Origin: a virus | Strand: one strand, 5' to 3' | DNA: 36,189 bases | Virus record (IMG/VR): IMGVR_UViG_3300028082_000004 | Coordinates: 1-36,189 of that record | Shown: piece after piece, positions 3,499-15,809 of the stretch | Layout: each line of letters opens with the position of its first letter | Position numbering within the stretch: the first letter of the stretch is position 1 | Made by a program: the position numbers and the translations under genes | Notes under the pieces: generated by a model | What the model was told of the DNA's origin: nothing | The model's input: the letters and a program-made list of their open reading frames with translations, nothing else | Databases searched by the model: none

Positions 3499-4179
3499 TT
3501 ACTTCTTCGGTGACTCGCTGAACCAGCCGAGGACGCGGCCGACGATGCCGTCGCCGTCCAACTCGGAGAGCGGCATCACGTCGTAGCGCGGGCTGACGTG
3601 ATAGGCCACCAGAATGTACATCGACTTGGTGCGGCGCAGAAACTTGATGGTGATGCCCCCATCGACCCGCGCGGCCACCAGGGAGTTCACCAGCTTCTTG
3701 GGGTCGCGCTGACTCACATCAATAAAGACAACCGCTCCTGACAGAATCAACGGTTCCATAGAGCCACCCTTGACGCGGATGGCCACCACGTTGCCGTGGC
3801 CGTCGCGGAAGAGGCTGAGTGGCATGTCGAGCGTCGTCTCGATTTCTCTTTCGTCCACCATGCGCGGCGTGCCTGCGGCAGCCGGATCATGCAACAGGTT
3901 CACGCTCAATGCCGGACGACCGTCTGTTGACGAGTTTGGTTCGGATTGCGAGACGAAAGCGGACAGGCCCGAGGCATCTAGGAGCTGGCGTTTGAGGGTC
4001 TCATTGGTGGTAAGCGCTGCGATTTTAACGAGGTTATCGTTGCTGGGATTTTTCTTCCCGCTTTCCCAGGCGGCAATAATACCCTGTACAACTCCGATTT
4101 TCTCGGCAAACTGTATCTGAGTCATTCCAAGTGACTTGCGGATAGACCTAATCGGAGAGTCTAAACCAATATCTCTCAT
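3499..4179 (-). CDS. CI-like phage repressor (HTH plus S24 peptidase)
   Basis: This 226-residue protein should maintain lysogeny by repressing the divergent early promoter. Residues about 10-65 are a Xre-family helix-turn-helix (MTQIQFAEKIGVVQGIIAAWESGKK). Residues about 110-220 are an S24/LexA-like self-cleaving domain with nucleophile Ser140 in GGSMEP and general base Lys179. An Ala102-Gly103 pair in the linker is the probable autocleavage site, which would allow RecA-dependent induction. A good AAGGAG ribosome site lies before the ATG. An operator-like sequence overlaps the start codon, suggesting autoregulation. Confidence 0.92.
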   Translation of the reverse strand: MRDIGLDSPIRSIRKSLGMTQIQFAEKIGVVQGIIAAWESGKKNPSNDNLVKIAALTTNETLKRQLLDASGLSAFVSQSEPNSSTDGRPALSVNLLHDPAAAGTPRMVDEREIETTLDMPLSLFRDGHGNVVAIRVKGGSMEPLILSGAVVFIDVSQRDPKKLVNSLVAARVDGGITIKFLRRTKSMYILVAYHVSPRYDVMPLSELDGDGIVGRVLGWFSESPKK

Positions 4180-12382: not shown

Positions 12383-12591
12383 TGCTTGAGACGCTCGACT
12401 TCGCCATCGGCACAAGAGGCGAGAAATGGCATGCGGTATGGCGCAACGCGCCCGACGGGCAAATGGAGGGGCCGGCGCGCGAAACAAAACAGGAAGCACT
12501 GCGGGACATCGATAACATCACATCTTTGGCAAAGCGGGTATTCCGCAAGCTGTTTCCGCACTGCATCATCAACGTCGGAAGGGTTCAATGA
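12382..12591 (+). CDS. Small phage protein, unknown function
   Basis: This 69-residue protein starts in a TAATG overlap with the HNH gene stop and ends in an ATGA overlap with the next frame, so it is tightly coupled in the early operon. The sequence MLETLDFAIGTRGEKWHAVWRNA is unremarkable and no family was recognised. Confidence 0.55.
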   Translation: MLETLDFAIGTRGEKWHAVWRNAPDGQMEGPARETKQEALRDIDNITSLAKRVFRKLFPHCIINVGRVQ

Positions 12592-12690
12592 GCGACCTGA
12601 TCCCGCATCTGCGCTCCTGCTACTTTCGCCAAGTCGCCGCCGGAACCAAAAAAGAAGAGTTTCGGCGCGTGACCCCGTACTGGGAAATTC
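12588..12690 (+). pseudogene. Truncated ASCH-domain gene (N-terminal remnant)
   Basis: The first 33 codons read as the start of a phage ASCH/PUA-like protein: LRSCYFRQVAAGTKKEEFRRVTPYWE, matching the usual YF..I..GTK..E.R..TPYW pattern. After PYWE (about 12687) the similarity stops, base composition turns AT-rich and the frame continues without a stop into the DUF4365-like gene. ASCH proteins normally run 100 residues or more, and no remaining ASCH strand pattern is seen up to 14700. The interpretation is that a cassette entered or replaced the 3' part of this gene. Confidence 0.6.
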
Positions 12691-12743
12691 TGATTTATCA
12701 TATACAGAAATCCGTATACCTACATTTTCGAGGAATCATAATA

Positions 12744-13292
12744 GTGCCTTTACCTGCAGGGGACCGAAAAGAGCTTATCTGCCGCGCGCACATTTCAGCA
12801 CTTGCCGCTATGGCAGGTGTAATGCTAGTTCCTCCAAGAGAATTTGACTTCGGAGTTGACGGAACCTTTCGCACAATGGAAGTACGACCAGAAGGGCGTC
12901 ATTGTGAAACAGGGTTTGCTCTAGATTTTCAGGCAAAAGCTTCGGTAAAGTGGATTCAGAAAGATGGGTTCATTATTTATGACTTGGAATGCAAGAATTA
13001 CAATGACCTCGTCAGTCGTAGCCATGCGGCGACCACGCTCATTTTAATTCTTCTCTGCCTTCCTAGGGACCAAAGAGATTGGCACGAAATTTGGCCAGGT
13101 AAGCAGAACGTGGCAGATGGAGCAACCCTTCTCCAGCACGCATGTTATTGGCTGCAGTTGGAGAAAGGGCCTACTGCCGATGGCAACACGAAGCGTGTGA
13201 GATTTTCTATTAAAAACTGTCTCACGCCAGCTGCTCTTTTAGAAATAATGGAAAATGATCGAGCTGAAAGAGAGGCGCGCTTTGAAGATTGA
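12744..13292 (+). CDS. DUF4365-like protein, possible PD-(D/E)xK-type fold
   Basis: A GTG at 12744 behind a GAGGA site (12730-12734) gives a 182-residue protein whose N terminus, PLPAGDRKELICRAHISALAAMAG, is what a DUF4365 protein should look like; the ATG at 12588 would fuse it to the ASCH remnant. Family features are FDFGVDGTFR (Asp39) and ALDFQAKAS (Gln63, Lys65), which resemble a D-(Q)xK variant of a nuclease-type core, then a YDLECKNYNDLVSRSH segment and a hydrophobic strand LILILLCLPRD. DUF4365 domains recur in mobile-element and defence settings; nuclease activity here is an inference. Its 3' end overlaps the next gene, so the two form a unit. Confidence 0.7.
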   Translation: MPLPAGDRKELICRAHISALAAMAGVMLVPPREFDFGVDGTFRTMEVRPEGRHCETGFALDFQAKASVKWIQKDGFIIYDLECKNYNDLVSRSHAATTLILILLCLPRDQRDWHEIWPGKQNVADGATLLQHACYWLQLEKGPTADGNTKRVRFSIKNCLTPAALLEIMENDRAEREARFED

Positions 13293-14484
13293 CGATATAG
13301 ATCTTCTAAAACTTGAGTCATTGCCGCTGAACTCAGTTCGCAGATTCCTTCAAGTTAAGGGATGGAGGAAAAGGCGTTTAAAAAACGATGTACTGCCGAA
13401 TGAACTCGGCGCTCATTCCTCATCGGATGCCCTGGACTTCTTTGTCCTGGAGAGTTGTGGGATACCAAGCTTGCAACTCGCTCTTCCGTCAAATCAAAAA
13501 AGTCCTGAACGAGTCATGAGACTTCGGGATGTTGTGCGAACACTGTCTCAACTGGAAGATCGATCTCCAGAAGAAGTGTTATCGGCCATCTTTACAGTTG
13601 GTTTTGATGTCGTGCGTTCTTCTATTCCATCGGAACTCGTATTCGATGATTCTATTCAGATGGAAATGGCAACAAGTTTTGTGCTGGGAATGAAGACGCT
13701 CTTAGCGTCAACTGCAACCACCGAGATTAACCCCACGCCATTTTTTCGGCGGCTGCGAAAAAATGGCGTAGCCTACGCCAATTCATGTCGGTTTGGGCAT
13801 ACGTATAGAGGCAGTTTCGGATTTACTTTAGAATCGCCTCTTGTCCCTCCGGCTGAGAATGATCTGTTTGATAAAGCTCCGGTTCCCTTCGAGCGAAAAG
13901 TTGTTATGAGGCTAATACAAGGGATGCGGCTTGCGTTCAAAGCTGCTGAAGAAGGAAACATCTCACCTATCGTTCAGGGCGTCGAATTGGGACTGTCAGC
14001 GAACGGCTGCGAAGATTTAGCAACTCTGATCGAGCAGGTCAGCCCCAAAGGATTATCGTTCGGATTCACTCTAAGTCCTGCAGTACCTACAAATATGCCA
14101 CCTGAGCGCATGGAATTCAAGGTGGCAGCTGAACATGCACAGCTTCTTCAAGAAGCAGCTAGAGAGCTTCGAAGAGAGGACTTTCAGATTCCAGTCCGAA
14201 TATCTGGTCGCGTTATCCGCCTGCAAAATGAATCTGATCCAACTGATCTTTCAGCAACTACCGGACTACATGAAATCGCAGTATTTTGGGAGAGTAAGGA
14301 CTTGGGAGATCTTTCCGTGAGCGTTGACCTCAGTCCAGAAGAATACTTGGCAGCTGTCTCAGCTCACGGTTCAGGGAGACCTGTGTACATTTCTGGCGAT
14401 CTTGCCAAAAGGGGACATCGGTGGAAACTTCTTCAACCAAAGGACTTTCGAATATATCAGCAGGGCGGACTTGATCTCACATAA
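13255..14484 (+). CDS. Unknown 400-residue partner of the DUF4365-like protein
   Basis: I do not recognise a named family. From ATG 13255 the product has 409 residues; a TTG at 13282 with a better-placed AAAGAGAGG site gives 400 residues starting MKIDDIDLLKLE, which may be the true start. The sequence looks like two halves: an alpha/beta N-terminal part with SCRFGHTYRGSFGFTLESP (about 180-200), and a C-terminal beta-rich part (about 310-400) with VRISGRVIRLQNESDP and VYISGDLAKRGHRWKLLQPKDF that may be an OB-like barrel. No catalytic motif or membrane segment is obvious. Composition is AT-richer than the phage. Overlap with the DUF4365 gene suggests joint function. A 14-bp perfect inverted repeat lies inside (13735-13769). 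Confidence 0.75.
   Translation: MIELKERRALKIDDIDLLKLESLPLNSVRRFLQVKGWRKRRLKNDVLPNELGAHSSSDALDFFVLESCGIPSLQLALPSNQKSPERVMRLRDVVRTLSQLEDRSPEEVLSAIFTVGFDVVRSSIPSELVFDDSIQMEMATSFVLGMKTLLASTATTEINPTPFFRRLRKNGVAYANSCRFGHTYRGSFGFTLESPLVPPAENDLFDKAPVPFERKVVMRLIQGMRLAFKAAEEGNISPIVQGVELGLSANGCEDLATLIEQVSPKGLSFGFTLSPAVPTNMPPERMEFKVAAEHAQLLQEAARELRREDFQIPVRISGRVIRLQNESDPTDLSATTGLHEIAVFWESKDLGDLSVSVDLSPEEYLAAVSAHGSGRPVYISGDLAKRGHRWKLLQPKDFRIYQQGGLDLT
13735..13769 (+). repeat. Perfect 14-bp inverted repeat within the unknown gene
   Basis: ACGCCATTTTTTCG (13735-13748) and its exact reverse complement (13756-13769) surround a 7-base loop. The right arm can instead pair with a third copy, TACGCCA (13774-13780), through TGGCGTA (13764-13770). 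Two mutually exclusive hairpins are therefore possible in the mRNA. Confidence 0.75.
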
Positions 14485-14694
14485 CTTTATCTGACGCATG
14501 ATGACGACGGCAGGCGAGAAAAGTCCAACTCGCATGCTCAGTACACTGATAATTGGTGGCACAATCAGTGCGTTCTGCTTTCGAAACAAGGGCCGCGCGA
14601 CGGAGGCAACCCTAAACCTGAACAAATGCACTTTCTCGGCATGGCCGGAGACGTGGGCGCTATGATAATACAAAACATCATCAATTGGAGGTAA
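14485..14694 (+). other. Orphan open stretch, possible 3' gene fragment
   Basis: This 210-base stretch has no obvious complete gene. However, the frame that continues directly after the stop at 14482-14484 stays open for 69 codons and looks protein-like near its end (HNQCVLLSKQGPRDGG, PEQMHFLGMAGDVGAM, IIQNIINWR). It has no early start codon, the first ATG being at 14626. It may be the 3' end of a gene that the inserted cassette displaced. It does not look like the missing part of the ASCH domain. Confidence 0.35.
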
Positions 14695-14698
14695 GTAA

Positions 14699-14908
14699 TT
14701 GAATATTAGCGATGTCACGGAATTCAAGACCGTAAATATTCCGCTCGGTGCGACGCCTGCGGAAAAAGCTCAGATCGCAGTGTTGAATCAAATCGTCGTT
14801 CAGATTGCACAGCTAAACAAAAACCTTGTCGGCATCGGACAGAGTGTCGCTAAATTGGGCAATGAAGTAGAGAGTGTCCGTATGCACGGAATCGCAAAGC
14901 GGCCGTAA
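14699..14908 (+). CDS. Small phage protein, unknown function
   Basis: A TTG start at 14699 follows a GGAGG site (14687-14691) at good spacing. The 69-residue product begins MNISDVTEFKTVNIPLGATPAEKAQIAVLNQ and is mostly one long helix with heptad-like hydrophobics (IVVQIAQLNKNLVGIGQSVAKLG), a likely coiled coil. It overlaps the next start (TAATG). Nothing more specific can be said. Confidence 0.55.
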   Translation: MNISDVTEFKTVNIPLGATPAEKAQIAVLNQIVVQIAQLNKNLVGIGQSVAKLGNEVESVRMHGIAKRP

Positions 14909-15090
14909 TGAAGACCTACGGCTTTAGCTGGAAACGCTTGCTCGGCATCACGGAGGCCCGCCAGAAGATCGCGCGGGCCACGGGCATCCCCACAACACGC
15001 GCGGGCCGCCGACGTAAGGCGGGAAACCTCCTGCTCAGCCTGTTGTTCGGCGCACCCAAGCGGGGCCGACGGAAGAAGTCTCTCTTCTAG
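14908..15090 (+). CDS. Small basic phage protein (SWKRLLGIT family)
   Basis: This 60-residue basic protein, MKTYGFSWKRLLGITEARQKIARATGIPTTRAGRRRKAGN, belongs to a group of short, Arg/Lys-rich phage proteins I have seen in other genomes; the role is unknown. Nucleic-acid binding is likely from charge. The start overlaps the previous stop. Confidence 0.6.
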   Translation: MKTYGFSWKRLLGITEARQKIARATGIPTTRAGRRRKAGNLLLSLLFGAPKRGRRKKSLF

Positions 15091-15142
15091 ATCGAGATTT
15101 TTACAGATCACCGTTTCACCCTCTTTACCTCTGAAAAATTGT

Positions 15143-15193
15143 GCGTTTTTCGCTCTAAACTGCCCTTGAAATGGCAAAAAGAGCGAAAAACGC
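15143..15193 (+). promoter_or_regulatory. 14-bp inverted repeat bracketing the start of the ParB-like gene
   Basis: GCGTTTTTCGCTCT (15143-15156) and AGAGCGAAAAACGC (15180-15193) are perfect complements. The start codon (15171) lies in the 23-base loop, where an inner TGCC (15161-15164) can pair with GGCA (15173-15176). The result is an RNA stem that would bury the start codon and weak ribosome site, or alternatively a DNA operator for the ParB-like product. Confidence 0.7.
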
Positions 15194-15809
15194 AACGCCT
15201 TGGCAGAATCGCATCGTCGCCCACACCGACGAAGATCCCGCGCAACTTCTTGCGCATCCTCTCAACTTCCGACGTCATCCCGGCGCACAGCGCAACGCAC
15301 TCCGCGGATCGCTGAACGAACTTGGCTGGCTCAAGAGCGTGCTGGTGAACAAGACCACCGGCCATGTCCTCGACGGTCATGCCCGCGTCGAAGAGGCGCT
15401 GAGCAAGGGCGGCACTGTGCCGGTCGATTGGGTAGAGCTGACGCCGGAAGAAGAGCGGCTGGCCCTGGCCGTGCTTGACCCGATCAGCGAGATGGCTACG
15501 CGTGACGATGAAGCGCTAGCCGGGCTATTGGCTGAGGTCGAAACACAGGATGAAGGTCTCGCTGAGCTGTTGCGCAGTATGGCAGACGAAGCGGCCGATG
15601 GCCTTCTTGGCGAAGAAAAGCCCGAGAAAGACAAGCTTGTCGACGAGATCGGTGTGGTGATTCCCTGCGCAGACGAAGCCGAGCAGATGACAATCCTTGC
15701 CAAGCTGCAGGCGGTCGGACTCCCGGCTTCACTGGCCACGATCAAGGGCAAGAAGGGCGCAAAGAAGCCCGGCACGGCCATGCGCTGCGAAAGTCAGATG
15801 GTGCAGTAA
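15171..15809 (+). CDS. ParB/Srx-like domain protein
   Basis: This 212-residue protein carries a ParB N-terminal-like fold (about 20-105): HPLNFRRHPGAQRNALRGSLNELGWLKSVLVNKTTGHVLDGHARVEEAL. The GHxR motif (GHAR) is the nucleotide-binding site in ParB-type CTPases and nuclease-like relatives. It lacks the usual helix-turn-helix and is followed by an acidic helical part and a basic tail. In phages such proteins often lie before DNA methyltransferases or terminases, as here before terminase. Exact activity cannot be decided. The start codon is enclosed in a perfect inverted repeat. Confidence 0.82.
   Translation: MAKRAKNATPWQNRIVAHTDEDPAQLLAHPLNFRRHPGAQRNALRGSLNELGWLKSVLVNKTTGHVLDGHARVEEALSKGGTVPVDWVELTPEEERLALAVLDPISEMATRDDEALAGLLAEVETQDEGLAELLRSMADEAADGLLGEEKPEKDKLVDEIGVVIPCADEAEQMTILAKLQAVGLPASLATIKGKKGAKKPGTAMRCESQMVQ

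What the first reader, a model, noticed from the sequence alone, without database searches (positions are those of the whole stretch)
12588..14694. Two-gene DUF4365-like cassette inserted into a broken ASCH gene
A DUF4365-like protein (GTG start 12744) and a 400-residue protein of no recognised family overlap by 38 bases and form a unit of AT-richer composition. The unit follows a 33-codon ASCH remnant that ends abruptly at PYWE. This is a prophage cargo slot between early genes and terminase. The DUF4365 core (Asp39, QxK at 63-65) may be nuclease-like, and the partner could be a sensor or effector. Together they may be an uncharacterised anti-phage or host-interaction system.
Basis: partly seen in the sequence, partly recalled or inferred. 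Interest (0 to 1): 0.78.

Follow-up and report, generated by a model that had tools for sequence, protein, structure and literature searches.

The report
Prophage-borne nuclease–OB-fold defence pair
A temperate phage carries, pasted over the end of one of its small genes, a two-gene module (a DNA-cutting enzyme plus a partner with a nucleic-acid-binding-type fold) that turns up together in scattered bacteria, plasmids and phages and is already listed, untested, as a candidate anti-phage defence system called PDC-M02.

Summary
ORF 12744–13292 is a true DUF4365 protein and ORF 13282–14484 its partner. PADLOC-DB models both, as PDC-M02A (E 3e-51) and PDC-M02B (E 8e-114), so the pair is a catalogued phage-defence candidate, not an unnamed system. 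I found no paper in the held library that names or tests it. Of 55 loci with M02B from many phyla, phages and plasmids, 51 carry M02A directly upstream on the same strand; the exceptions are a contig edge, an IS insertion, a frameshifted M02A and an M02B fragment. Neighbours include type IIG restriction, Druantia and AbiD genes. The M02A model matches the SPARDA DREN nuclease domain best (Z 13.6); its invariant D39/Q63/K65 correspond to the DREN catalytic D/Q/K. M02B ends in an OB fold of the ssDNA-binding type; its N-terminal 300 residues match nothing known here. The unit (46.8% GC in a 59% phage) replaces the last 58 codons of an ASCH-like gene that is intact in two syntenic phages; identity stops exactly after PYWE (12686). 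Most likely function: nuclease effector controlled by a nucleic-acid-sensing partner, defending against competing phages or plasmids. Activity is untested. New member of a known kind.

The parts
12588..12686 (+). 5' remnant (33 codons) of an ASCH-like gene, ends at ...TPYWE
   Evidence: 61% and 67% aa identity over residues 1-33 to intact genes L009:750-1025 and L017:2581-2859; phrog_625 residues 2-36 E 1.3e-5
12686..12687 (.). left junction: homology to syntenic phages stops; last 58 codons of the ASCH-like gene absent from the window
   Evidence: DNA identity in 20-nt steps drops from 16 to 5 and then 3-4 of 20
12730..12734 (+). ribosome-binding-like GAGGA before GTG 12744
12744..13292 (+). 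PDC-M02A, DUF4365 nuclease, 182 aa; D39 (12858-12860), Q63 (12930-12932), K65 (12936-12938)
   Evidence: Pfam PF14280 E 1.2e-13; PADLOC PDC-M02A E 3.3e-51; model pLDDT 88; SPARDA DREN fold Z 13.6
13272..13275 (+). ribosome-binding-like GAGG before TTG 13282
13282..14484 (+). PDC-M02B partner, 400 aa from TTG 13282 (409 aa if ATG 13255)
   Evidence: PADLOC PDC-M02B E 8.1e-114, E 7.1e-114 for the 400-aa form; model pLDDT 86
14185..14460 (+). C-terminal OB-fold domain of M02B (about residues 302-393)
   Evidence: Foldseek and VIA-align hits to SilF, SSB, PriB, RPA
14485..14698 (.). stretch without assigned gene between the cassette and the small ORF 14699-14908; right boundary of the cassette lies somewhere in 14485 to about 14900
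   Evidence: GC 49.5%, then 55.6% at 14699-15090; first backbone gene with syntenic homologues is the ParB-like ORF 15171-15809

Best explanation
The cassette is a complete PDC-M02 pair carried as cargo by a temperate phage. M02A is a single-domain PD-(D/E)XK nuclease of the SPARDA DREN type with an intact D39/Q63/K65 site (fold and residues shown by comparison; activity inferred). M02B is the controlling partner: its C-terminal OB fold probably binds nucleic acid, most likely single-stranded or otherwise exposed DNA of an invading phage or plasmid, and it holds M02A off until such DNA appears, then brings M02A copies together or delivers them so that they cut DNA (inferred). The result would be exclusion of competing phages and plasmids from the lysogen, by degrading invader DNA or by killing or stalling the infected cell (inferred). 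The module reached this phage by horizontal transfer and replaced the end of an ASCH-like gene (composition and comparison shown; route of transfer inferred).
For: Both proteins hit PADLOC PDC-M02A and B models with no other system competing in the lists shown. M02A lies directly upstream of M02B on the same strand in 51 of 55 loci, across Alpha- and Betaproteobacteria, Acidobacteriota, Actinomycetota, Spirochaetota, Chlamydiae, Opitutaceae and Chloroflexi MAGs, phages and plasmids. In 385 genomes of one class DUF4365 occurs in 9 and M02B in 5; all 4 assessable M02B genomes have DUF4365 adjacent. Patchy (5/385, 6/297) and usually AT-richer than its flanks. Neighbours: MmeI-type IIG restriction enzyme in Leptospira phage LE1, DruH on a Rhizobium plasmid, AbiD and GmrSD-type genes on an Entomospira plasmid. 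D39/Q63/K65 invariant. M02A model: the 13 best PDB matches are all SPARDA chains, Z 13.6. DREN D41/Q60/K62 are catalytic; DREN alone is an inactive monomer activated by partner-driven tetramerisation (PMC12205087); TmuRE Q62/K64 likewise (PMC10810196). M02B residues 300-398 match OB folds.
Against: No experiment; [quoted passage not shown] OB folds also bind proteins, metals and sugars; the best Z row is SilF, a metal-binding protein, so ssDNA sensing is a guess. The N-terminal 300 residues of M02B have no identified fold (not searched alone). No sigma-70-like promoter on the + strand was found upstream, so expression in the lysogen is not shown. Several copies sit next to housekeeping genes, not defence genes.
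Confidence: 0.6

Rival explanations
1. A phage DNA-metabolism module: M02A is a resolvase-like nuclease and M02B an SSB- or RecO-like OB protein used for the phage's own recombination or replication.
For: M02A also resembles archaeal Holliday-junction resolvases (Hjc, Z 10.2); M02B OB domain resembles SSB, PriB and RecO; the cassette lies between early genes and terminase.
Against: Present in only about 1-2% of genomes sampled and on bacterial chromosomes and plasmids. Found at different places in different phages: between primase and terminase, beside the integrase, after tail genes. Not seen in syntenic relatives. Much AT-richer than the phage.
Confidence: 0.1
2. A toxin-antitoxin type addiction module: M02A is a toxic nuclease neutralised by M02B, kept for prophage or plasmid stability, defence being secondary.
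For: Two tightly coupled, usually overlapping genes on plasmids and prophages; nuclease effector.
Against: Partner is 380-400 aa with two or more domains, larger than usual antitoxins; nuclease gene comes first; M02A alone may be inactive, as DREN alone is (PMC12205087). Not excluded by sequence.
Confidence: 0.15
3. A restriction-like system: M02B recognises a modification or sequence on incoming DNA and M02A cuts there directly, without abortive infection.
For: PD-(D/E)XK nuclease; neighbours include restriction genes.
Against: No methyltransferase in the cassette; M02A resembles the non-specific DREN nuclease most.
Confidence: 0.15

Closest known systems
PDC-M02 (PADLOC-DB 2.0.0 phage defence candidate)
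   Same: Both proteins match the M02A and M02B models; same order and strand as relatives
   Different: Nothing that separates it from the family; it is one more member, at most 42% identical in M02B to the nearest relatives found
SPARDA (short pAgo + DREN-APAZ nuclease)
   Same: Nuclease domain fold and D/Q/K catalytic residues; DUF4365 effector paired with a partner protein
   Different: No APAZ domain on the nuclease (182 aa only), no Piwi protein found in the record; the partner carries an OB fold instead
Archaeal Holliday junction resolvase Hjc
   Same: PD-(D/E)XK fold (Z 10.2)
   Different: Lower score than DREN; different genomic setting; no OB-fold partner gene known to me
SSB / RPA / PriB OB-fold proteins
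   Same: Fold of the last about 95 residues of M02B
   Different: M02B has 300 further residues with a conserved RxGxTxxGS motif (R170, G172, T174, G177, S178), not found in SSBs to my knowledge

Membership tests
PDC-M02 (PADLOC) | first protein matches PDC-M02A | tested here: met
   PDLC04290 E 3.3e-51 over residues 7-176
PDC-M02 (PADLOC) | second protein matches PDC-M02B | tested here: met
   PDLC04301 E 8.1e-114 over nearly full length
PDC-M02 (PADLOC) | genes adjacent, same strand | tested here: met
   overlapping ORFs 12744-13292 and 13282-14484
PDC-M02 (PADLOC) | anti-phage activity | not testable with these tools
   needs plaque assays
Pfam DUF4365 (PF14280) | profile score over gathering cut-off | tested here: met
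   51.7 bits against 24.3
PD-(D/E)XK nucleases, SPARDA DREN type | fold | tested here: met
   Foldseek E 1.3e-6 and VIA Z 13.6 over 143 residues, rmsd 3.6 to SPARDA chains, DREN part
PD-(D/E)XK nucleases, SPARDA DREN type | catalytic D, Q, K | tested here: met
   D39, Q63, K65 invariant in 12 and 21 sequences; DREN D41/Q60/K62 per PMC12205087. Correspondence rests on order and spacing in the fold, not on inspected coordinates
SPARDA | short pAgo (MID-PIWI) partner | tested here: not met
   Piwi model PF02171 no match anywhere in the record at E<=1; M02B no Pfam match
SPARDA | APAZ domain fused to the nuclease | tested here: not met
   M02A is 182 aa and the DREN domain takes it all (model residues 1-182 against residues 3-155 of about 400 in the SPARDA chain)
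ASCH (PF04266) | Pfam ASCH profile on the remnant or its intact homologues | tested here: not met
   no match at E<=10 in window, L009, L017. A RefSeq record annotates a homologue, in Salmonella phage AG11, as ASCH domain-containing, and phmmer gives 1xne at E 0.1, so 'ASCH-like' only

The most novel reading that the evidence does not exclude
PDC-M02 is an Argonaute-free sibling of SPARDA: the same collateral DREN nuclease, but triggered not by a guide RNA but by an OB-fold partner that senses single-stranded DNA of replicating phage or plasmids and drives nuclease oligomerisation.
Probability: 0.3. Interest if true: 0.65.

Novelty: new member of a known kind. Interest (0 to 1): 0.43.

Why it matters
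It gives an unvalidated, widely scattered defence candidate a concrete mechanism to test: a DREN-type nuclease without Argonaute, governed by a partner with an OB fold. If active, it would show how one nuclease effector is reused with different sensors, and it documents such a system as temperate-phage cargo replacing part of a phage gene.

Tried and rejected
Single-protein searches of viral and genome contigs with M02B found nothing: too divergent; alignments were needed. Megablast of the region against phage records: no match. No PDB sequence relatives for either protein. 'One normal phage protein with no cassette' rejected: the ORF fusing the ASCH remnant to DUF4365 exists, but relatives of M02A start at the GTG and relatives of the ASCH-like gene continue differently. 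Insertion with the 3' half kept downstream rejected: that half is not in the window. Flanking direct repeats marking a transposition event: none convincing. An apparent effector swap in L093 was only a frameshifted M02A. Matches of the OB domain to toxin B-subunits are common-fold matches and were not pursued. A known fold for M02B residues 1-300 was not found, but that part was not predicted or searched alone, so this is no evidence of a new fold.

Full report
What is there. The window is one 36,189-base virus record. It has an integrase (181-1395), a CI-like repressor on the opposite strand (3499-4179), a RecE-like exonuclease, large terminase and portal genes, so it is a temperate phage. 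Between the early genes and the packaging genes lies a 1.8-kb unit of two overlapping + strand ORFs. The first, 12744-13292, starts at GTG with GAGGA 9 nt upstream. The second most likely starts at TTG 13282 (GAGG 6 nt upstream, and the N-terminus then aligns with relatives), giving 400 aa and an 11-nt overlap; the ATG at 13255 that gives the 38-nt overlap has a poor ribosome-binding site.

Composition. 12687-14484 has 46.8% GC; other windows of that length average 58.9%, sd 2.6, lowest 50.7. Third-position GC is 0.40-0.41 against 0.67-0.84 for most of the neighbouring genes compared, the exception being the small ORF 14699-14908 at 0.53. Homologous pairs elsewhere are also AT-richer than their flanks in most of the loci compared.

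The broken gene. Residues 1-33 of the frame at 12588 match intact 91- and 92-residue genes in two contigs that share the phage backbone (terminase 70-72% identical): L009 750-1025 and L017 2581-2859. DNA identity stops exactly after codon 33 (PYWE, 12686), and the remaining 58 codons are nowhere in the window. In L009 the intact gene is followed by what reads as a single-strand-binding-protein gene and then the ParB-like gene; in L017 it is followed by a different small gene that looks like an acetyltransferase (both names by reading only). A third relative, L006, keeps only the last 15 codons after an unrelated stretch, so this spot has been cut more than once. The name ASCH is reasonable but soft: Pfam's ASCH model does not score the remnant or the intact genes, while a RefSeq record labels a homologue in Salmonella phage AG11 an ASCH domain-containing protein; 214 phage records hold relatives, and phmmer gives 1xne at E 0.1. 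The event is a replacement, not a clean insertion. The right boundary lies somewhere between 14485 and about 14900; the first gene downstream with homologues in the syntenic phages is the ParB-like one at 15171.

Identity. Pfam DUF4365 matches the first protein at E 1.2e-13. PADLOC-DB 2.0.0 matches the first to PDC-M02A (E 3.3e-51) and the second to PDC-M02B (E 8.1e-114), with no other system in the lists shown. So this is a catalogued phage defence candidate. No paper in the held library names it; [quoted passage not shown]

Co-occurrence. M02B relatives were found on plasmids and in phages, in IMG/VR contigs, in GTDB genome contigs and in two even samples of genomes (5 of 385 in the class of a Pontixanthobacter genome; 6 of 297 in the phylum of an Acidobacteriaceae genome). 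M02A lies directly upstream, same strand, in 51 of 55 loci. The exceptions are L089 (contig edge), L050 (an IS6-like fragment in its place), L093 (frameshifted M02A) and L068 (an M02B fragment). Three of the 55 are repeats of the same locus (L082 of L058, L090 of L075, L094 of L073). The M02A profile was trained on 11 of these loci, but Pfam and the records' own DUF4365 annotations are independent: in the 385-genome sample DUF4365 is rare (9 genomes), yet all 4 assessable M02B genomes have it next door.

Setting elsewhere. In other phages the pair sits at different cargo positions: between primase and terminase (L058), between a tail/lipase gene and the integrase (L064), after tail genes (L067, L070). 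On other elements it neighbours an MmeI-type IIG restriction enzyme (Leptospira phage LE1), DruH of Druantia III (Rhizobium plasmid), and AbiD and GmrSD-type genes (Entomospira plasmid). Elsewhere it stands beside housekeeping genes such as a uvrB-, lepA- or 6-phosphogluconate-dehydrogenase-type gene.

Structure. The M02A model (pLDDT 88) finds SPARDA chains as its 13 best PDB matches, Z 13.6 over 143 residues, rmsd 3.6; Holliday junction resolvases follow at Z 10.2. D39, Q63 and K65 are invariant. In NbaSPARDA DREN, D41, Q60 and K62 are the catalytic residues; DREN alone is an inactive monomer that becomes a collateral nuclease on partner-driven tetramerisation (PMC12205087). In TmuRE the QxK pair was likewise named as the active site (PMC10810196). 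The M02B model (pLDDT 86) has a C-terminal OB fold, residues about 302-393, similar to SilF, SSB, PriB and RPA. The Z values of 7-10 are enough for the fold, not for the ligand. The first 300 residues carry much of the strongest conservation (W28, D109, R170-G172-T174-G177-S178, R205) and have no assigned fold here.

Mechanism. Shown: a nuclease fold with intact catalytic residues, near-obligate pairing with an OB-fold partner, horizontal spread, company of defence genes at some loci. Inferred: the partner senses DNA or another sign of infection and switches the nuclease on, protecting the lysogen from competitors. The rivals are an addiction module, a restriction-like system, and a phage recombination module; the last is least likely because the pair is patchy and not tied to phage genes.

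Verdict. The pair is a new member of a known but uncharacterised kind. What this adds is the identification with PDC-M02, the corrected start, the replacement rather than insertion, the SPARDA-DREN likeness of the nuclease, and the OB fold in the partner.

Noticed in passing
window 15142-15194: Perfect 15-nt inverted repeat (TGCGTTTTTCGCTCT / AGAGCGAAAAACGCA, 23 nt apart) straddling the ATG (15171) of the ParB-like gene; looks like an operator or translational control site.
   Followed up: no
window 13735-13769: Perfect 14-nt inverted repeat with a 7-nt loop inside the M02B coding sequence.
   Followed up: no
L006:1-540: A syntenic relative keeps only the last 15 codons of the ASCH-like gene after a stretch that in L009 lies downstream of the ssb-like gene: a second, independent break of the same gene.
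   Followed up: partly
L085:5286-6969: In Chenggangzhangella the pair looks decayed: M02A split over frames and M02B shortened.
   Followed up: no
L050:4480-4812: Pigmentibacter ruber plasmid M02B has an IS6-like transposase fragment in place of M02A.
   Followed up: no
window 12588-13292: The ASCH remnant frame runs open through the junction into the DUF4365 frame, so a 234-aa fusion could be made besides the GTG-started protein.
   Followed up: partly
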